DNA from: a virus
DNA: 20,061 nt
IMG/VR virus record: IMGVR_UViG_3300037232_000055
Location: 1-20,061 of that record
Reading direction: 5' to 3' (one strand)
The position numbers were made by a program, and so were the translations under genes. This document shows, piece after piece, positions 1,575 to 19,292 of the stretch. The notes beneath the pieces were generated by a model. The model did not search any database. It worked only from the letters and a program-made list of their open reading frames with translations, and had not been told where the DNA came from. Each line of letters opens with the position of its first letter. Positions within the stretch are counted from its first letter, which is position 1.

Positions 1575-1896
1575 CCTCGCCGAGTTGGAACTGCTGCACG
1601 GGGCAGAGCGCGCATTTAATGCAGACCCTAAAATATGTGGGGCGGAATGGCGCAAGGCGAGAAATGAGTTACTAGCGTATCTTGAGGGGCACATCCCTGC
1701 CATCCTTGCGATGGGTGCCGAGTGCGAGCGGCTGCGGGGAGAGCTTGGCGCCCTAGCGGCGAGGCAGGCGAGAATCCAAGCTATAGCGGAAGAACCGGAT
1801 ACGCTGCTAGTGAACCCCGCAGCCGATGACAGCCAATCTCGGAAACGGATGATGAAGATTAGGGGAATTACATACTTAACTCCCCACAGATATTGA
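1564..1896 (+). CDS. small helical protein whose 3' end lies in a mobile element end
   Basis: A GTG at 1564, preceded at the right distance by GGGAGG, gives a 110-residue protein. It is mostly helical and charged (DLAELELLHGAERAFNA..., ERLRGELGALAARQARIQ), with possible coiled-coil character. An upstream TTG at 1540 has no comparable ribosome site. The last 10 or so residues (RGITYLTPHRY) are encoded by the left-end hairpin of the tnpB element, so the original C terminus was probably replaced when that element inserted. No family recognised. Confidence 0.55.
   Translation: MPLDLAELELLHGAERAFNADPKICGAEWRKARNELLAYLEGHIPAILAMGAECERLRGELGALAARQARIQAIAEEPDTLLVNPAADDSQSRKRMMKIRGITYLTPHRY
1862..1885 (+). 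repeat. left-end imperfect palindrome of tnpB element 1
   Basis: GGGGA pairs with TCCCC and TTA with TAA around a CATACT loop, with one A-C mismatch. The same 5' GGGGA and 3' TCCC pattern occurs at the right end (3183-3204) and in its second copy (3269-3290). Confidence 0.5.
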
Positions 1897-1927: not shown

Positions 1928-2077
1928 ATGGCCAAGAAGAAAACACCGAAAGAAAAAATGATCCTGGTCTCTGTTCGGATGACTCGGGAGCAATACGACA
2001 AGATCGTGCGTGCTGCCAAGGCCGGTAAGGAATCGTTCAGCGCCTACGTGCGGCGCGTTTGCGGAGTAAACCCGTAA
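1928..2077 (+). CDS. small ribbon-helix-helix (CopG/Arc-like) protein
   Basis: This 49-residue ORF starts at ATG 1928 and ends at TAA 2075-2077, directly abutting the tnpB start. After a lysine-rich N terminus (AKKKTPKEK) it has a short strand (ILVSVRMT), a helix (REQYDKIVRAAKA), a turn (GKE) and a second helix (SFSAYVRRVCG). This is the order of the RHH DNA-binding fold, which acts as a dimer. No Shine-Dalgarno site is seen and the predicted transcription start coincides with the ATG, so leaderless translation is likely. It most plausibly autoregulates itself and tnpB. It could instead be an element-specific end-binding protein. Its inclusion in the element is inferred from its place inside the left end. 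Confidence 0.65.
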   Translation: MAKKKTPKEKMILVSVRMTREQYDKIVRAAKAGKESFSAYVRRVCGVNP

Positions 2078-3199
2078 ATGATGAGAGCGTTCCAGTTCCG
2101 GCTGCGTCCCAACGCCACACAGGCGAAGGTGCTGGAACGCATTCTTGCCGACAACTGCGAGACGTACAACGCGGCGCTCAGCGAGCGGCGTGAGGCGTGG
2201 AAGCTTCAACGGAAGTCGATCACCTATCGCAACCAGCAGGATGAGTTGACGGAGCTTCGTAAGGATACCGCGTTCCAGTGGATCGCCTGCGACATACAGC
2301 GCGACCCTCTACGCCGAGTGGACCGCGCGTTTAAGGCATTCTTTCGACGCTGCAAGGCTGGGCAGAAGCCAGGATTCCCCAGGTTCCGATCTCGGAGTAG
2401 GTACGACTCGTTCACGTTCAACTTGCCGACTTGCCGTGAGCGCAGCATTAAGATCCCGAACGTAGGAGACATCAGGGCGCGAGGAGGACGGCCCATTGCA
2501 GGGAACGCGAAGATCTGCACGATCAAGCGAGACGGAAAGCGTTGGACCGCCTCGGTAGTCTGCGACATTGGCCCCGCGCCAGAGAAGCGTACTGTCGAGC
2601 GGGCCGTGGGTATTGACGTGGGGCTGACGACGTTGGCAACGCTGAGCGACGGTACGGAGATTGAGAATCCGCGCTGGACAAAGGAATACGAGGAGCGTAT
2701 CGCGGCGGCAGGACGAAGCCTAGCAACCAAAAAGCGCGGATCAAAGAACCGCCTGAAAGCGAAGGAGCGTCTACGCCGAACACACCAAAGCGCGGCAAAC
2801 TGCCGGACGAACTATCTGCACCACGCCTCCAAGTGGCTGGTGCAGAACTACGACCTGATCGCGTACGAGGGTCTGAAGATCTCGAACATGGTCAAGTCTA
2901 ACTTCGCAAAATTTATTCTGGATGCGGCGTGGGGACAGCTGATATACATGGTGGGCTACAAGGCTGCGAGTGCTGGTGCTTACTGTATTGCAGTCAACCC
3001 GCGTGGCACGAGTCAAAGATGTTCCGGTTGCGGAGCCATCGTAAAGAAGACGCTGAAGCAGCGGGAGCATCAGTGTGCGTGCGGAACGATCTTGGGGCGC
3101 GATCATAACGCAGCCCTGAACGTCCTAGCGCTCGGGATGAGCGCGGCTGGGTTTATGCCAGCAGAATCTATACAGAGACTCGGGGAGTCATGCATATAA
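2078..3199 (+). CDS. tnpB: RNA-guided nuclease TnpB (IS200/IS605 family)
   Basis: The 373-residue protein has the standard TnpB length and layout. An N-terminal wedge/helical part begins MRAFQFRLRPNATQ, and the RuvC-like nuclease has all three acidic residues: D180 in GIDVGL, E264 in AYEGL and D342 in GRDHNAALN. A zinc finger sits between the last two, with CSGC (C315, C318) and CAC (C333, C335). The protein should therefore be catalytically intact. In the family, TnpB binds a right-end-derived omega RNA and cuts DNA matching the guide next to a short target-adjacent motif, which helps the element persist. The gene starts immediately after the RHH stop, so the two are co-expressed. Its last codons form part of the right end, and an altered copy of them lies just downstream. 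Confidence 0.93.
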   Translation: MMRAFQFRLRPNATQAKVLERILADNCETYNAALSERREAWKLQRKSITYRNQQDELTELRKDTAFQWIACDIQRDPLRRVDRAFKAFFRRCKAGQKPGFPRFRSRSRYDSFTFNLPTCRERSIKIPNVGDIRARGGRPIAGNAKICTIKRDGKRWTASVVCDIGPAPEKRTVERAVGIDVGLTTLATLSDGTEIENPRWTKEYEERIAAAGRSLATKKRGSKNRLKAKERLRRTHQSAANCRTNYLHHASKWLVQNYDLIAYEGLKISNMVKSNFAKFILDAAWGQLIYMVGYKAASAGAYCIAVNPRGTSQRCSGCGAIVKKTLKQREHQCACGTILGRDHNAALNVLALGMSAAGFMPAESIQRLGESCI

Positions 3200-3204
3200 A
3201 TCCC
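3130..3204 (+). ncRNA. predicted omega RNA 3' scaffold of tnpB element 1
   Basis: TnpB guide RNAs come from the 3' end of tnpB plus the element right end, with the guide read from the flanking DNA. Here the segment covers the last tnpB codons and the terminal palindrome (GGGGA...TCCC, to 3204). The guide would begin at about 3205. The 5' boundary cannot be set by eye and may lie upstream inside tnpB. Confidence 0.4.
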
Positions 3205-3213
3205 AACATTAGA

Positions 3214-3285
3214 CGGCTCGGGATGAGCCTTGCGGGGTTTACGCCCCCAGAATCTATACAGAGGCTCGGGGAGTCATGTATATAA
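3214..3285 (+). pseudogene. remnant of a second tnpB C terminus
   Basis: Read from 3214, the second right-end copy encodes RRLGMSLAGFTPPESIQRL and then GESCI, followed by TAA. The active gene ends in LGMSAAGFMPAESIQRL and then GESCI, also followed by TAA. Differences include both silent changes (AGA/AGG, TGC/TGT) and replacements, so this is the tail of a related but diverged tnpB rather than a fresh duplication. No other part of that gene is visible. Confidence 0.6.
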
Positions 3286-3641
3286 GTCCCAGCGAGTATC
3301 GAGAATTCAGGGATGCCGCAGACGTATTCGCGGCGTGCTGCCCTAAGGCAAAACACTTTGACGGAGATTGTGCAGCGGCGAATCGACTGTATCCAATCCT
3401 GGAGAAGATCAGGGAACGCGCCGTATCCGCCGCCGACGATCCGCGCGACGCCACCATCCACGAACTGCTGGCGCTGTGCGGGGAGGCATATCGGTTTATT
3501 TGTAGAACGTCCTCAGCTCCCTACAGTGTATGTGGACATCCAAGAAGCGATGAGTATGCAGAGATCGAATTAAAGCTCAAGGCCGCAGCCCAGGCGCTTG
3601 AGGAGACGGCGCAGAGAATAAGGAAGGAGATCAAGGGATGA
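3276..3641 (+). CDS. hypothetical helical protein starting inside the element end
   Basis: This 121-residue protein is predicted largely helical, with a central segment (LYPILEKIRERAV) and a C-terminal one (YAEIELKLKAAAQALEETAQRIRKEI). The only good start, ATG 3276, lies inside right-end copy B, with CGGGGAG before it. The element end therefore supplies both the ribosome site and the first five codons (MYISP). The genuine N terminus may have been lost. Residues around 60 contain DDPRDATIHEL, matching DPRDAEIAKL in the next gene, where 15 bases are identical. The stop overlaps the next start (ATGA). No family recognised. Confidence 0.55.
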   Translation: MYISPSEYREFRDAADVFAACCPKAKHFDGDCAAANRLYPILEKIRERAVSAADDPRDATIHELLALCGEAYRFICRTSSAPYSVCGHPRSDEYAEIELKLKAAAQALEETAQRIRKEIKG

Positions 3642-9472: not shown

Positions 9473-9547
9473 CCCCTACATAATAATAATGATACGGCAC
9501 TGGATTTTTGTGGTACACTTTGTCTGTGTCTGGACTAGGGGGTGGCA

Positions 9548-10231
9548 ATGAAAGCAGCGGCATACTGTAGGGTTTCGACTAAAGATCAGGCAGAAAACGG
9601 CGTCTCCCTGAAGGACCAAAGGGCCAAGATCGAGGCTATGTGTGTGGTTCGAGGAGACGAGCTTGTAGCGCTGGTAACGGACGAGGAATCCGGCAAGGAT
9701 CTCAACCGTCCCGGTTTCCAACAGATTCAGCGGATGGTGGAGGACCACGAAGTCGATGTCGTCATCATCGCGAAGTTGGACCGGCTGACCAGAAGCGTGG
9801 GGGATCTGGCGCACCTTCTGGCCCTATTCGATAAACATGGAGTGGCGCTCGTATCCCTAGCTGAGTCTCTTGACACACAGAGTGCAGCGGGCCGTCTTGT
9901 GATTAACGTCATGGGTGCCGTGGCCCAATGGGAGCGGGAAGTGATCTCCGAGCGGACGAAGGCGGCACTGGCGTATAAGAAATCGAAGGGGCAGCGGGTG
10001 GGGAATATCCCGTTCGGGTACAAGATGGGCGAGGGGAAGCAATTGGTTGAAAGCGAGTATGAGCAAATAATCATCAAGGTCATCGCATACCACAGGAACG
10101 AGGGGATGAGCTACCGGGAGATTGCCCGTTGGCTAAATGGATCTGTTTACACAACCCGCACGGGCGGCAAGTGGCGGCACGAGTCGGTCGAAGACGTTTA
10201 CAAGGCGAAGCCGGTAGTACTGTCGGCGTAG
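9548..10231 (+). CDS. serine recombinase, short form
   Basis: ATG 9548 has AGGGGG before it. The 227-residue protein has an N-terminal resolvase/invertase catalytic domain: R8 and S10 in YCRVSTKDQ, the KLDRLTR motif (D78, R79, R82), and the long helix with GAVAQWEREVISERTKAAL. After about residue 150 comes NIPFGYKMGEGKQLVESEY and a helical segment with GMSYREIARWLN, like the start of the Recombinase domain of large serine integrases. It lacks their zinc ribbon and coiled coil, and is about half their length. It may resolve, invert or integrate DNA. A TACACT box at 9514-9519 could be a -10, but no good -35 was found. The flanking 28-bp repeats are candidate substrates. Confidence 0.9.
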   Translation: MKAAAYCRVSTKDQAENGVSLKDQRAKIEAMCVVRGDELVALVTDEESGKDLNRPGFQQIQRMVEDHEVDVVIIAKLDRLTRSVGDLAHLLALFDKHGVALVSLAESLDTQSAAGRLVINVMGAVAQWEREVISERTKAALAYKKSKGQRVGNIPFGYKMGEGKQLVESEYEQIIIKVIAYHRNEGMSYREIARWLNGSVYTTRTGGKWRHESVEDVYKAKPVVLSA

Positions 10232-11304: not shown

Positions 11305-11430
11305 CATCCTCCGCCACCTAAAAGGAGGCGGATTCCTGAAGGACATGCTACACACATCCAACAGAACGGTTCCTGCTTCGCAGACAGTTGCCCTTGCGCC
11401 CTTGCGGACGCTTGGGTCTTACGCCGTCTC
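11301..11430 (-). ncRNA. predicted omega RNA of tnpB element 2
   Basis: The RNA would cover the 3' part of tnpB, the short tail after it, and the right-end hairpin. Near 11301 the minus strand ends in GGAGGATGTCAA, a form recalled from other IS605 right ends. The guide would be read into the flank from about 11300 downwards, into the end of the FkbM-type gene. The 5' limit given is approximate. Confidence 0.4.
11310..11332 (-). repeat. right-end hairpin of tnpB element 2
   Basis: On the plus strand TCCGCC-A-CC-TAAAA-GG-A-GGCGGA forms a stem of 6 + 2 base pairs with one A-A mismatch and a 5-base loop. Confidence 0.7.
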
Positions 11431-12520
11431 CACAGGCTTTCAGGGCCAGCCCGGCCCCAGAGATGTTGGCCGCTGCGTTCACGTCCCGATCATGTTCCGC
11501 CCCACATTGCGGGCATATCCACTGTCGCACGTTAAGCGGCATCGAAGTGGCAACGTGCCCACACTTGGAGCATCGTTTGCTCGACGGGAACCAGCGGTCA
11601 ATCTTAATCAATTCTCGACCGTACCACGCGCATTTGTAGGCCAGTTGTCGCGTGAACTCACTCCAGCCGGAATCACTAATCGACCCGGCAAGGCAGTGGT
11701 TGGACAGCATCCCACGGACGTTAAGGTCTTCTATCACAATCGTTTGGTTTTCACAGACGAGCTTGGTGCTCAACTTGTGAAGGAAGTCCTGCCTGATGTC
11801 GGAGATTTTCTGGTGGATCTTTGCCACTCGGATGCGGGCTTTATTCCTGTTCTTCGATCCTTTCTTTTTTCTGGACAAGGCTTTTTGAGCCCTCTTCAAT
11901 TGTGCCATCTTGCGCCGCAACGGGCGAGGGGATTGGTACTTGGAGCCGTTGGAAGTGACGGCGAAGTCCGTCAGTCCAAGATCAACCCCGATAGCCCCCT
12001 CCGCTGGCGGCATGGTCTTCGGCGGTTCGTCTACGCGGAACGAGACGTAGTATCGCCCAGAGGGAGTCTTGCTCACATTGACGGTGCTAGGCTTCCCGAA
12101 GAAGCGGCGAGACCACTTGATCTTCAAAGGGCCGATCTTCGCCAGGGAGAGAACTTCCCCGTCCCATTTGAAGGCGGAAGTTGTGTACTCAGCCGATTGC
12201 TTCCCGCCCTTCTTCTTGAACGATGGGTGTCCAGCCCGCTTCTCCCAGAAGTTCACGAACGCAACCTGAAGACTTCTAAGGGATTGTTGAGTTGGTACGC
12301 TGCTTATTTCGTTCAGCCAAGCCGTATCCGTTTGCTTCTTGAGTTTAGTCAGTTCGGCAGAGGTCCGGGGGTAGTTGACTCTCTCTTTACGCTCGTACCA
12401 CGCTTGGGTTCTCAATGCGAGGGCGAAATTGTAGACAAATCGGCAAGCTCCGAAGGTTCTGGAAAGCGCGGCTCCCTGCTCTGGAGTGGGGTAGAACCGG
12501 AATTTGAACCCTCTAACCAT
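11348..12520 (-). CDS. tnpB: RNA-guided nuclease TnpB (IS200/IS605 family), second copy
   Basis: The 390-residue protein is a full-length TnpB: N-terminal VRGFKFRFYPTPEQ, RACRFVYN-like wedge sequence (ACRFVYNFALALR), GHPSFKKKGGK, and the RuvC residues D180 (GVDLGL), E264 (VIEDLNV) and D346 (DRDVNAAANI). The zinc finger is complete with CSKC and CPQC (C317, C320, C336, C339). All catalytic residues are present. It is clearly different in sequence from the tnpB at 2078 and its end hairpins differ too, so it belongs to another IS605 subgroup and arrived separately. It lies antisense to the phage operon. A TATAAC/TACAAT-rich stretch at 12531-12541 may be its promoter, but no clear -35 was found. 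Confidence 0.93.
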   Translation of the reverse strand: MVRGFKFRFYPTPEQGAALSRTFGACRFVYNFALALRTQAWYERKERVNYPRTSAELTKLKKQTDTAWLNEISSVPTQQSLRSLQVAFVNFWEKRAGHPSFKKKGGKQSAEYTTSAFKWDGEVLSLAKIGPLKIKWSRRFFGKPSTVNVSKTPSGRYYVSFRVDEPPKTMPPAEGAIGVDLGLTDFAVTSNGSKYQSPRPLRRKMAQLKRAQKALSRKKKGSKNRNKARIRVAKIHQKISDIRQDFLHKLSTKLVCENQTIVIEDLNVRGMLSNHCLAGSISDSGWSEFTRQLAYKCAWYGRELIKIDRWFPSSKRCSKCGHVATSMPLNVRQWICPQCGAEHDRDVNAAANISGAGLALKACGDGVRPKRPQGRKGNCLRSRNRSVGCV

Positions 12521-16240: not shown

Positions 16241-16250
16241 GGGCGTGTGT

Positions 16251-19200
16251 ATGGCCGACTCCCGTTGGCACCAAGACCTTGAGGTTGCTCAGCTTATCGA
16301 GCACCTAAATCAAGAAGATAAATTCAATCAACCCGATAACCTCACCCCATCCGAGGTCAGGGTCATCCTCCGCGAACTCGAACACTGCCGGAACGACTTC
16401 GTGTATGCGGCCAGAAACTACTTCTGGATCACTACCAAAAAGCTAAGAAATCAATTACTTACTCTGTTACCGGCCCAGGAACTTATATTGGAAAAAGTTC
16501 TTGAAATGAAGGCTAAGAAACAGCCACAAAAGATTATAATCATAAAAGCGCGCCAATTGGGGGCACTTGATCCTAAATCAAGGCTGCTAACTGTTGATTA
16601 CAGGTGGGTTGCGATAGAAGATATCGTCATCGGGCAAGAGCTAGTCGCCATGGACGAGCACGCCAAAGGGAACGGGAAGAAGCTCCGGCTGGCTACCGTC
16701 CTCAAAAAATGGGAAGTCAAAAAGCCAGCGTTTGAGATCAGCTTCGACAACGGAGAGAAGATCATCGCTACCGAAGATCATCCATTTCTTTCCAAAATCA
16801 GGGGGGGCGTCGGAACTAAGTGGGTGGAGGTAAAGGATCTTCGGGTGGGAGACCCGATCAGGCAGATTGCCAAACCATGGGAGGACGGCGACAAGGAAGA
16901 CTACTGGTATGGCGGGCTCCTAGACGGGGAAGGCTGCATCCGCAATAAATGGCGGGGTGGCGCTGAGGTCGGGCCATCTCAAGTATTCAACGAGGTCTTC
17001 GACAGGGCTCACCGATACCTGACGGACAAAGGCTACACCTTCCACGTTGAAGTTGACAACAGGAAGAGCGGGACGTCCAGTAAGATTGGCAATCAACCAG
17101 TGGCTAAGCTGTTGGTCAACAGAACAGACCAAATCATGAAGATTCTTGGCCAATGTAGGCCCGTCAGACTCATGGGGAAGAAGTGGTGGGAGGGGATGGG
17201 GCTTCCCGGTAAGCGAGAAACCGGGCACGCCTGGGTGCATATAACCTCCATTCAGCCACTTGGCGTCCGTCGTATGATTGACATCCAGACGTCCACTGGA
17301 ACCTTCGTAGCCGAAGGCGTTGCAACCCACAACTGCTCGACACTAATAGAGGCGCTTATAGCTTGGCGCACGATGTTCTTTACAAACATAAATGCCCTCG
17401 TAGTCTCTTACGACAAGGCCCATACTTCGGATGTTCTGTTCCCCATCATGTGCTTCATTTACGATAATATGCCCTGGTGGATGAAGCCGATGTGCGCCCA
17501 GAGGAAGGCCGACGAGCTTCTATACTTCGACAATCCCAAGCCAGACTTAAGGAGCATTGATCCTGGATTAAACAGTAAGGTGTTCGTCAGAGGAGCAAAT
17601 TCTTCTGGCGTCGGGCAGGGAATAAGGTTAAGCGCCGTACACGTTTCTGAGTTTACGGAATATGCGGAGGACGTAGCTCGCGGGATTATTGATGAAGACA
17701 TGGTGAATGCTCTTGTGGAAGACGAGAACACCTTTGCTATTTTGGAATCAACGGCTAAGGGGGCCAACCGTTACGGGCATAAACTCTGGAAGCGCTGTAT
17801 GGAATTGCTGGGGAGCGATGAGGCTGAGTGGTATCCACTATTCCTTCCGTTCTTTTTTGAGGCAACTAGAGTCCGCCCGGTGCCTGTCAACTGGAGGGTT
17901 GAGACGCCGGAGTTTAGAATGAGGGAGAAAGTAGAGTCGGAGTGGCTTCGCTGCCAGCGAAGTGAATGTTTACAGTATCACTACCGCTACGTTCAAAAGG
18001 TAGACAGATCTGGTTTAATTTGCCCAACCTGCGAGATTGGGATACTTAACCCATACGTGTTGGCCGACGAGCAACTGGCATGGTATGAGCATCGTAGAAA
18101 GAATTCGGACAGAGACGAAGAGAGTTCTAAGTTACTGAAACAGGAAATGGCCAGCACAGGCGAAGAGGCATTCCAGTTGCAGGGTTATCAGATATTCGGG
18201 CAGAAGGCGCAGGACTTCGCCAATATAAACGTGCGGAACCCGATAGCAGAGGGAGACTTCGATCTGGCTGGAAGATTCCACGGATGTAATACTACCAATC
18301 CAAAGAACGAAGCTGGGTTTTATTCCTGCTACCAGGAGGATTGCAACCTCGATCACACTTACGACGATGCTCCGCTGAAGATCTGGGAGTGGCCCATGCC
18401 GGAGGCTGAATACTGCATAGGTGCTGATCTCTCGGAGGGGTTGGGAGGCAAGTCGGCCTACAGCGTAGGGGTCGCTATCCGGTTTAGCACGACAGGCGGC
18501 GGAGATTATCAGGTAGCAACGTGGAGGGCAAACACGATTGATCCTATTGGGTTTGCCTATAAACTGAACCATCTTGGTTTGCTTTACAACAGCGGACTGA
18601 TGTCTGTCGAATGCAACCGATATGACATTTGCTTAGGCACGCTGCGCTACCAGTTGGGGTATCCCAATCTATACCGCTGGAAGCACCTGGATTCGATGAA
18701 CATCATGTCGAACAAACTAGGATGGTGGACAAATATGTCTTCCCGTCCCCGGTTATGGCAGACGTTCAAGCGGTGGCTACAGCAGGAATTGTTCTTTGTC
18801 CGATCTCGCAATCTGGCGGAAGAAATGAAAAACTTCGTTAAGAACGAAGAAGATTCCTACAGCGCTGGTGGCGACCAAGATGAGTTTGATGACGAGAATA
18901 TGGCGGCGATGATTGCCCTTTATACCGCCCACGAAGGAGATTGGAACGACAGCCTGGGGATGATCGCGCCGAAGGCGAAGTTGGCAAAAGAAGATGCCGT
19001 CTATGTGATAAAGTGCCAGAACTGTCAGAACGAATGGTGGGCCAACACAGTCGAGGATAAGAACATAGACCCGACAGAGTTTCAGCCGCAGATGGACCCC
19101 AATCACAAAGTAGTCCAGTCTGGAGGGATGCGGTGTGCGGTATGTGGGAGCCGTAGGCTTGAGATTACGCGGAACAATAATAGTGGCACGCCGGTGTCGC

Positions 19201-19292
19201 AACAAGGAGAAGATGATCTTATCGACGAAGCGAACCAGTATTGGGACCCATCGCAGGAGTGGAATAATCCGAACGACATGGAAGTTTTCTAG
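16251..19292 (+). CDS. terL: terminase large subunit interrupted by an intein
   Basis: The 1013-residue precursor is a phage DNA-packaging motor with a 257-residue intein; the spliced protein would be 756 residues. ATPase: Walker A-like KARQLG plus CST (split by the intein), Walker B-like AVHVSEF, and coupling motif ILESTAKG. A zinc site is likely in the insertion with CQRSEC and CPTC. Nuclease: D in IGADLSEG, E in LMSVECN and D residues in DEFDDENM, the RNase H-like triad. A further CQNC...CAVC zinc ribbon lies near the C terminus, making it longer than most TerLs. AAGGG before ATG 16251 selects this start over GTG 16245. The protein translocates DNA into the prohead and cuts it. Confidence 0.93.
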   Translation: MADSRWHQDLEVAQLIEHLNQEDKFNQPDNLTPSEVRVILRELEHCRNDFVYAARNYFWITTKKLRNQLLTLLPAQELILEKVLEMKAKKQPQKIIIIKARQLGALDPKSRLLTVDYRWVAIEDIVIGQELVAMDEHAKGNGKKLRLATVLKKWEVKKPAFEISFDNGEKIIATEDHPFLSKIRGGVGTKWVEVKDLRVGDPIRQIAKPWEDGDKEDYWYGGLLDGEGCIRNKWRGGAEVGPSQVFNEVFDRAHRYLTDKGYTFHVEVDNRKSGTSSKIGNQPVAKLLVNRTDQIMKILGQCRPVRLMGKKWWEGMGLPGKRETGHAWVHITSIQPLGVRRMIDIQTSTGTFVAEGVATHNCSTLIEALIAWRTMFFTNINALVVSYDKAHTSDVLFPIMCFIYDNMPWWMKPMCAQRKADELLYFDNPKPDLRSIDPGLNSKVFVRGANSSGVGQGIRLSAVHVSEFTEYAEDVARGIIDEDMVNALVEDENTFAILESTAKGANRYGHKLWKRCMELLGSDEAEWYPLFLPFFFEATRVRPVPVNWRVETPEFRMREKVESEWLRCQRSECLQYHYRYVQKVDRSGLICPTCEIGILNPYVLADEQLAWYEHRRKNSDRDEESSKLLKQEMASTGEEAFQLQGYQIFGQKAQDFANINVRNPIAEGDFDLAGRFHGCNTTNPKNEAGFYSCYQEDCNLDHTYDDAPLKIWEWPMPEAEYCIGADLSEGLGGKSAYSVGVAIRFSTTGGGDYQVATWRANTIDPIGFAYKLNHLGLLYNSGLMSVECNRYDICLGTLRYQLGYPNLYRWKHLDSMNIMSNKLGWWTNMSSRPRLWQTFKRWLQQELFFVRSRNLAEEMKNFVKNEEDSYSAGGDQDEFDDENMAAMIALYTAHEGDWNDSLGMIAPKAKLAKEDAVYVIKCQNCQNEWWANTVEDKNIDPTEFQPQMDPNHKVVQSGGMRCAVCGSRRLEITRNNNSGTPVSQQGEDDLIDEANQYWDPSQEWNNPNDMEVF
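16563..17333 (+). other. Ala1 intein with single-motif LAGLIDADG-type endonuclease
   Basis: The intein occupies residues 105-361 of the TerL precursor, between G104 and C362. Block A is ALDPKSRLLTVDYRWVAIED, block B contains IATEDHPF (the T-x-x-H motif), and the C-terminal blocks read MIDIQTSTGTFVAEG and VATHN followed by Cys+1. The first residue is Ala instead of Cys or Ser, so the first acyl shift cannot occur in the usual way and Cys+1 would have to attack directly, as in KlbA-type inteins. An endonuclease-like segment starts at YGGLLDGEG; a second LAGLIDADG motif was not seen. The intein splits the Walker A motif, so an unspliced TerL should be inactive. Confidence 0.88.

What the first reader, a model, noticed from the sequence alone, without database searches (positions are those of the whole stretch)
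3130..3290. Tandem right ends behind tnpB: possible two-guide omega RNA locus
The tnpB right end is followed 86 bases later by a second copy at 65/75 identity that keeps both the coding tail and the terminal palindrome. If both act as RNA scaffolds, one locus would yield two guides, from about 3205 and about 3291. The conserved block is the palindrome core and AGAATCTATACAGAG, so the second copy may be under selection. The simpler reading is insertion of one element beside the remnant of a relative.
Basis: partly seen in the sequence, partly recalled or inferred. Interest (0 to 1): 0.72.

Follow-up and report, generated by a model that had tools for sequence, protein, structure and literature searches.

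The report
TnpB element nested in relative's tail
A phage carries an RNA-guided DNA-cutting gene (tnpB) inside a small mobile element, and the "second right end" behind it is the leftover tail of a related element into which the first probably jumped; the leftover keeps a full guide-RNA fold and would aim at a real site in a sister phage, but nothing yet shows that it is used.

Summary
The repeat is real: 3130-3205 and 3216-3291, 66/76 identical, 86 apart. Both copies end in a 22-bp terminal repeat, GGGAMTTATATANNTRACTCCC (0 expected by chance). A third copy at 1863-1884, facing inward, is the element's left end. The same repeat bounds >100 phage elements, mostly with perfect 8-bp target duplications. 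Many encode an IS1595-family transposase. So this tnpB is a passenger of an IS1595-type element. Left end and copy A carry 7/8 matching 8-mers (AAGATTAG/AACATTAG). The right 8-mer is tnpB-tail codons of copy B. Sister phage L204 has the empty site for copy B, exactly at 3290/3291. Copy B is therefore the relic of a second element, probably with element A inserted in it; a comparable relic (L148) and a solo extra end (L019) occur in other phages. Stems 1-2 covary across 17 relatives, copy B keeps every stem, and its flank matches the empty site in L204/L205 20/20. Two working guides remain possible but unshown. Unforeseen: tnpB insertions show G-A at the duplication edge, 10/10 versus 10/50 for other passengers (p=2.5e-6), a candidate TAM.

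The parts
1855..1862 (.). 8-bp left flank of element A, AAGATTAG (target-duplication candidate); G at 1854 and A at 1855 = candidate TAM edge
   Evidence: 7/8 match to 3205-3212; GA at this edge in 10/10 tnpB-bearing insertions
1863..1884 (+). left terminal repeat GGGAATTACATACTTAACTCCC (1 mismatch to family pattern)
1928..2077 (+). small ORF between left end and tnpB; NikA-like/ribbon-helix-helix, 49 aa
   Evidence: Pfam PF21983 E 2e-6
2078..3199 (+). tnpB, 373 aa, D180/E264/D342 intact
   Evidence: Pfam PF01385, PF07282, PF12323; residues invariant in 15 relatives
3127..3204 (+). predicted omega-RNA scaffold A (stems 1, 2, 3 and outer stem with one mismatch, A3172/C3193); 3' end inside the terminal repeat
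3183..3204 (-). right terminal repeat A (2 mismatches)
3205..3212 (.). 8-bp right flank of element A, AACATTAG; start of proposed guide A (AACATTAGACGGCTCGGGAT), which is tnpB-tail sequence of copy B
3205..3285 (+). relic of a second tnpB: in-frame C-terminal codons NIRRLGMSLAGFTPPESIQRLGESCI*
3213..3290 (+). predicted omega-RNA scaffold B, all stems intact
3269..3290 (-). right terminal repeat B (0 mismatches)
3291..3310 (+). proposed guide B, AGCGAGTATCGAGAATTCAG; 20/20 match to empty site in L204/L205 next to ...GATG
3276..3641 (+). phage gene whose start codon (ATG 3276) is now supplied by right end B (MYISP + SEYREF...); in L204 it starts MSEYREF

Best explanation
The tnpB gene lies in a non-autonomous element with IS1595-family ends (22-bp terminal repeats, 8-bp A/T-rich target duplications) that an IS1595-type transposase moves in trans. 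An earlier element of the same kind (B) had inserted right after the start codon of a phage gene. A deletion removed B's left end, most of its tnpB and neighbouring phage DNA, leaving an 86-bp tail with B's right end. Element A then inserted into this tail at AACATTAG, or A inserted first and the deletion came later. The 'tandem right ends' are thus a nested insertion over a relic, not a duplication of A. Shown by sequence: the ends, the duplications in sister elements, B's empty site, the tnpB reading frame through the 'spacer', and comparable relics elsewhere. Inferred: the order of events, transposition in trans, and that TnpB works with an RNA whose 3' end is the terminal repeat plus the fixed flanking A, giving a guide copied from the right flank. 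Whether copy B is used as a second scaffold is open.
For: Terminal repeats at 1863, 3183 and 3269. The same repeat bounds >100 phage elements, 53 of 73 listed non-tnpB pairs with perfect 8-bp duplications; one cluster of interior ORFs spans 31 elements, and a member (L029) is PF12762/PF12760. tnpB element L143 has a perfect duplication AATTAAAT. Left end/copy A 8-mers match 7/8, against 54 of 6,719 mismatched pairs reaching 7 or 8. L204/L205 carry B's empty site AAGGGATG|AGCGAGTATCGAG. L148 is a sister of L143 with a ~1.27-kb deletion that leaves a ~245-bp tnpB tail plus right end, the same kind of relic. L019/L020 carry a solo terminal repeat with perfect duplication AATCTATA inside the tnpB tail that their sister L013/L018 has uninterrupted. 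Copy B is 91% identical to L013's tail, only 85% to copy A.
Against: The A duplication is 7/8, not perfect. The deletion breakpoint must fall within a few bases of A's left flank. No genome with an intact B was found. Only 2 of 10 tnpB-bearing elements show a matching duplication, against 53 of 73 for other passengers, which is unexplained. No transposase is in this 20-kb record.
Confidence: 0.8

Rival explanations
1. Working two-guide locus: transcripts through tnpB give two omega-RNAs, one with a guide from 3205 (aimed at tnpB tails of the B type), one with a guide from 3291 (aimed at the empty site in sister phages). TnpB A loads both. (This concerns use, and can be true together with the relic origin.)
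For: Copy B keeps all stems including the outer stem in which copy A has a mismatch; stems 1-2 covary over 17 relatives. Guide B matches L204/L205 20/20 next to ...GATG, while both sites in the window itself are preceded by CCC, so they would be protected. TnpB catalytic residues intact.
Against: No independent double tail among 12 other terminal-repeat-bearing tnpB loci; the only sister (L014) is 99.9% identical, so no selection can be measured; scaffold B would have to be cut from a transcript that also holds scaffold A; no RNA data.
Confidence: 0.15
2. Tandem duplication of A's own right end (slippage or unequal recombination), later diverged.
For: Direct repeat, same orientation, short spacing.
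Against: B is closer to L013 than to A; differences in stem 2 are paired changes matching other lineages; B's right junction coincides with an empty site in L204; the spacer is extra tnpB coding sequence of the B kind.
Confidence: 0.06
3. A inserted in phage DNA at the left site; a deletion then joined A's right flank to B's tail, with no insertion of A into B.
For: Phage DNA corresponding to L204 1250-2988 is missing between the two sites.
Against: Then the 5-base match ATTAG beyond the shared AA between left flank and B's codons would be chance.
Confidence: 0.15
4. IS200/IS605-type element moved by a Y1 TnpA without target duplication; resemblance to IS1595 ends is chance or convergence.
For: Most tnpB-bearing members show no matching duplication; TnpB usually travels with IS200/IS605 or IS607.
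Against: Both ends match the IS1595-type repeat over 22 bp with 0 expected; L143 has a perfect 8-bp duplication; all ten left flanks fit the A/T positions of the IS1595-type target.
Confidence: 0.07

Closest known systems
ISDra2 TnpB and its omega-RNA/reRNA (IS200/IS605)
   Same: RuvC-type nuclease with RNA read from the tnpB 3' end plus right end plus ~16 nt of flank; stem 1 whose loop pairs with the scaffold's 3' end (PMC8612924, PMC10097598). Here stem 1 has loop GGGAU and the scaffold would end ...UCCC.
   Different: ISDra2 insertion does not duplicate the target and its TAM is TTGAT; here ends are IS1595-like with 8-bp duplications, and only G-A is fixed at the edge.
IS607 TnpB of ISXfa1
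   Same: An invariant nucleotide flanking the right end is part of the RNA scaffold, so the guide starts one base further out (PMC10711439); here the base after the right end is A in 12 of 13 ends.
   Different: IS607 recombines at GG dinucleotides (PMC10711439) and does not show the terminal repeats and 8-bp duplications seen here.
IS1595 family (ISXO2-like, relative of eukaryotic Merlin)
   Same: GG(G) termini, inverted repeats, 8-bp A/T-rich duplications (PMC8101967, PMC12561309); passenger genes are known in insertion sequences (PMC3129680, citing Siguier 2009 on IS1595).
   Different: This element codes for no transposase and carries tnpB with its scaffold reaching into the terminal repeat.
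Fanzor2/Fanzor1 captured by eukaryotic DDE transposons
   Same: An RNA-guided nuclease of the TnpB lineage carried by cut-and-paste elements with terminal repeats and duplications (PMC10711439, PMC3627910).
   Different: Eukaryotic; here a prokaryotic phage TnpB.
IscB/TnpB with stand-alone RNAs, CRISPR arrays
   Same: One protein with more than one guide (recalled, not tested).
   Different: Only two copies; the 'spacer' is coding relic, not an acquired spacer.

Membership tests
TnpB (OMEGA nuclease) | OrfB_IS605 + Cas12f1-like TNB domains, RuvC D-E-D | tested here: met
   D180, E264, D342 invariant in 15 relatives
TnpB (OMEGA nuclease) | structured RNA overlapping tnpB 3' end and right end | tested here: met
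   stems 1-2: 91% of cells paired vs 80% shuffled, covariation 0.336 vs 0.114, 0/500 shuffles; common fold; outer stem with terminal repeat, p=8e-6 vs other elements but rows not independent
TnpB (OMEGA nuclease) | RNA-guided cutting next to a TAM | not testable with these tools
   only a candidate G-A edge: 10/10 vs 10/50, p=2.5e-6
IS200/IS605 element | insertion without target duplication, Y1 TnpA | tested here: not met
   L143 has a perfect 8-bp duplication, window A 7/8; no TnpA recognised by eye among the window ORFs; most other members show no matching duplication
IS1595 family element | inverted terminal repeats with GGG ends and 8-bp A/T-rich duplications | tested here: met
   window duplication 7/8
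IS1595 family element | DDE_Tnp_IS1595 transposase in the element | tested here: not met
   absent from the window element; present in other elements with the same ends, PF12762 E 1e-38 in L029: non-autonomous passenger element
TldR (nuclease-dead TnpB repressor) | degraded RuvC triad | tested here: not met
   triad intact
CRISPR array | short repeats with unique acquired spacers | tested here: not met
   two 76-nt copies; spacer is tnpB coding sequence
Multi-guide TnpB locus | two mature RNAs from one locus | not testable with these tools
   no RNA data

The most novel reading that the evidence does not exclude
Nested insertion has built a small natural two-guide array: TnpB A uses its own scaffold to cut B-type tnpB tails (rival elements) and the relic scaffold B to cut sister phages that still have the empty site, driving its phage type. 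More broadly, a TnpB lineage has moved to IS1595-type ends, with the transposon's terminal repeat as the 3' end of its guide RNA and its TAM read across the target-duplication edge.
Probability: 0.15. Interest if true: 0.8.

Novelty: new variant of a known kind. Interest (0 to 1): 0.5.

Why it matters
The double end itself is ordinary transposon history, but tracing it shows a phage TnpB lineage carried by IS1595-type (DDE) ends rather than IS200/IS605 or IS607, a prokaryotic parallel to Fanzor capture by cut-and-paste transposons. It gives directly testable claims: a G-A TAM at the duplication edge, a fixed flanking A as the last scaffold base, and a guide that matches a known sister phage perfectly. 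If the relic scaffold works, it is a natural example of one TnpB gaining a second guide by nested insertion.

Tried and rejected
(1) Guide starting right after AGAATC (inside the tail), because stems 1-2 and CARAATC are shared with relatives that lack the terminal repeat: dropped because the block after AGAATC pairs with the terminal repeat (outer stem) in nearly all members and the fold continues to the repeat. (2) CRISPR-like repeat array: rejected, spacer is coding. (3) Tandem duplication of A: rejected by identities and junctions. (4) Rfam: no family in the window at gathering score. (5) genome contigs: one relative only (L025); a search of 297 genomes of its phylum gave otherwise only relatives at 36-44% identity; the two inspected whose ends could be read (L152, L154) end in ...AGTAGTCAC, without the terminal repeat. 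(6) Phage database: nothing above 41% identity listed. (7) A sister with the left flank of A uninterrupted: no hit. (8) Any second genome with the double tail at another site: none in two tail or core scans. (9) Thermodynamic folding z-scores alone are weak (-1.1 to -2.3); the case rests on covariation. (10) Papers naming IS1595 together with TnpB as one element: none apparent among five open-access hits.

Full report
Observation. Both include the last codons of tnpB (2078-3199, 373 aa, domains OrfB_IS605 and Cas12f1-like TNB) and the terminal palindrome. The ten bases between the copies are not a neutral spacer: AACATTAGACGG continues the tnpB reading frame of copy B (NIRRLGMSLAGFTPPESIQRLGESCI*) and lines up with NIKRLGMS in L001. 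Copy B is therefore the tail of a second tnpB that begins immediately after the end of A.

What the ends are. Aligning relatives showed that left and right ends share one 22-bp terminal inverted repeat, GGGAMTTATATANNTRACTCCC. In the window it occurs at 1863-1884 (+), 3183-3204 (-) and 3269-3290 (-); 100 shuffles gave none. Most form inward-facing pairs, and 53 of the 73 listed non-tnpB pairs are flanked by identical A/T-rich 8-mers. One cluster of interior ORFs spans 31 of the paired elements; the member tested (L029) carries the IS1595-family transposase domains PF12762 and PF12760. Several others carry passengers such as DNA methyltransferases. Ends, duplication length and base preference fit the IS1595 family as described (PMC8101967, PMC12561309). 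The window element codes for no transposase, so it is a non-autonomous passenger element of that family. tnpB member L143 has a perfect duplication AATTAAAT.

Who pairs with whom. The 8 bases left of the left end are AAGATTAG; those right of right end A are AACATTAG (7/8); those right of right end B are AGCGAGTA (no match). Only 54 of 6,719 mismatched left-right pairs from other elements reach 7 or 8 matches. So the left end belongs with copy A, and A's right flank is B's tnpB codons. Sister phages L204/L205 lack B and read AAGGGATG|AGCGAGTATCGAGAATTC, identical to the window from 3291 on; this fixes B's right junction independently and shows that B had inserted just after the start codon of a phage gene (MSEYREF...), whose start is now supplied by right end B (MYISP-SEYREF). 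On the left, homology to L204 stops near 1744, and about 1.7 kb of L204 genes are absent from the window, so a deletion took B's left end and body.

The same accidents occur elsewhere. L148 is a sister of L143 (99.7-100% identical flanks) with ~1.27 kb deleted, leaving ~245 bp of tnpB tail plus the right end. L019/L020 are sisters of L013/L018 with one extra 22-nt terminal repeat and a perfect 8-bp duplication AATCTATA inside the tnpB tail. Extra right ends thus arise by ordinary insertion and deletion. Copy B resembles L013's tail (91%) more than copy A (85%), which argues against duplication of A. The near-identical fragment L014 has both copies unchanged but is only 4 substitutions away in 5,818 bases, so it says nothing about selection.

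Could both ends make guides? Stems 1 and 2 of the tail covary in 17 relatives: 91% of cells paired against 80% in shuffles, covariation score 0.336 against 0.114, 0 of 500 shuffles as high; slid controls far lower. Single-sequence folds agree on stem 1 with a GGGAU loop, stem 2, and an outer stem in which the block TATACA pairs with TGTATA of the terminal repeat. In 13 tnpB ends this outer pairing is longer than beside the repeat in other elements (p=8e-6, rows not independent). The last bases UCCC could pair with the GGGA loop of stem 1, as in the ISDra2 pseudoknot, where scaffold bases -5 to -3 pair with the stem-1 loop (PMC10097598); the loop is invariant here, so covariation cannot test this. 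Copy B holds the whole scaffold with all stems intact; copy A has a mismatch in the outer stem (A3172/C3193). So copy B is not visibly decayed, though 86 bp is too little to prove constraint.

Candidate TAM. In ten independent tnpB insertions with a recognisable left end, the base before the left 8-mer is always G and its first base always A; among 50 other passengers with perfect duplications the pair GA occurs 10 times (Fisher p=2.5e-6). The base after the right end is A in 12 of 13 tnpB ends. B's empty site in L204, not among the ten, also reads G|A. In the IS607 element ISXfa1 an invariant flanking base is part of the scaffold (PMC10711439); the same is proposed here, with the A doing double duty as TAM edge on the left and last scaffold base on the right. 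Limits: ten sites, two positions, and the rule was found in the data it is tested on. A special target preference of the transposase that moves tnpB elements is an alternative.

What the guides would aim at. Guide A (AACATTAGACGGCTCGGGAT) matches tnpB tails of the B kind; among fetched loci the best targets outside this phage have 3 mismatches. Guide B (AGCGAGTATCGAGAATTCAG) matches L204 and L205 20/20 next to GATG. Both places in the window itself follow CCC and would be spared. If scaffold B works, the phage would cut sister phages without the insertion, the gene-drive logic shown for IS200/IS605 elements in plasmids (PMC11870625). This is an inference with no RNA evidence.

Verdict. Observation confirmed; the simpler reading (element beside the relic of a relative) is the best-supported one and is now explained in detail; the two-guide reading stays open at about 15%. 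New beyond the finding is a TnpB lineage carried by IS1595-type ends in phages. Among five open-access papers holding both words none appears to describe this pairing (titles and abstracts only), and subscription journals are not covered. Unexplained: only 2 of 10 tnpB-bearing elements show matching duplications, against 53 of 73 for other passengers.

Noticed in passing
window 16245-19292 (+): Large ORF that looks like a terminase large subunit interrupted by an intein-like stretch (GALDPKSRLLTVDYRWV ... VAEGVATHNC); judged by eye only.
   Followed up: no
window 11348-12520 (-): A second, unrelated TnpB (390 aa, same Pfam domains); no terminal repeat of the family nearby.
   Followed up: partly
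window 9542-10231 (+): Resolvase/serine-recombinase-like ORF, judged by eye.
   Followed up: no
window 1928-2077; L017 2789-3000; L143; L021 2750-3000: Some tnpB-bearing elements hold a small ORF between left end and tnpB (NikA/RHH-like in the window, small Cys-rich proteins in L017, L143, L021); most relatives have none.
   Followed up: partly
L026-L142: Large family of phage elements with one 22-bp terminal repeat and 8-bp duplications, with many different passengers (C5 and N6/N4 methyltransferases, PAPS-reductase-like by eye, and others): a passenger-carrying IS1595-type system in phages.
   Followed up: partly
L019 2069-2130 and L020 4102 onwards versus L013/L018: Solo 22-nt terminal repeat with perfect 8-bp duplication inserted in frame inside the tnpB tail.
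   Followed up: yes
L148/L178 versus L143: Deletion of ~1.27 kb removes left end and most of tnpB and leaves a right-end relic; 6-bp overlap at the junction.
   Followed up: yes
window 3276; L016 downstream of 4103: The right end carries GGGGAGTCATG, a possible ribosome site plus start codon, that reads in frame into the phage gene behind it (MYISP...).
   Followed up: partly
L001, L010, L013, L016, L017, L021, L022, L024: tnpB-bearing elements with left and right 8-mers that do not match, although both follow the G|A and A rules; origin unexplained (recombination between copies, age, or homing).
   Followed up: partly
L082, L127, L142: Terminal repeats 30 nt apart (22 + 8) in several phages: looks like adjacent insertions sharing one duplication, seen from spacings only.
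   Followed up: no
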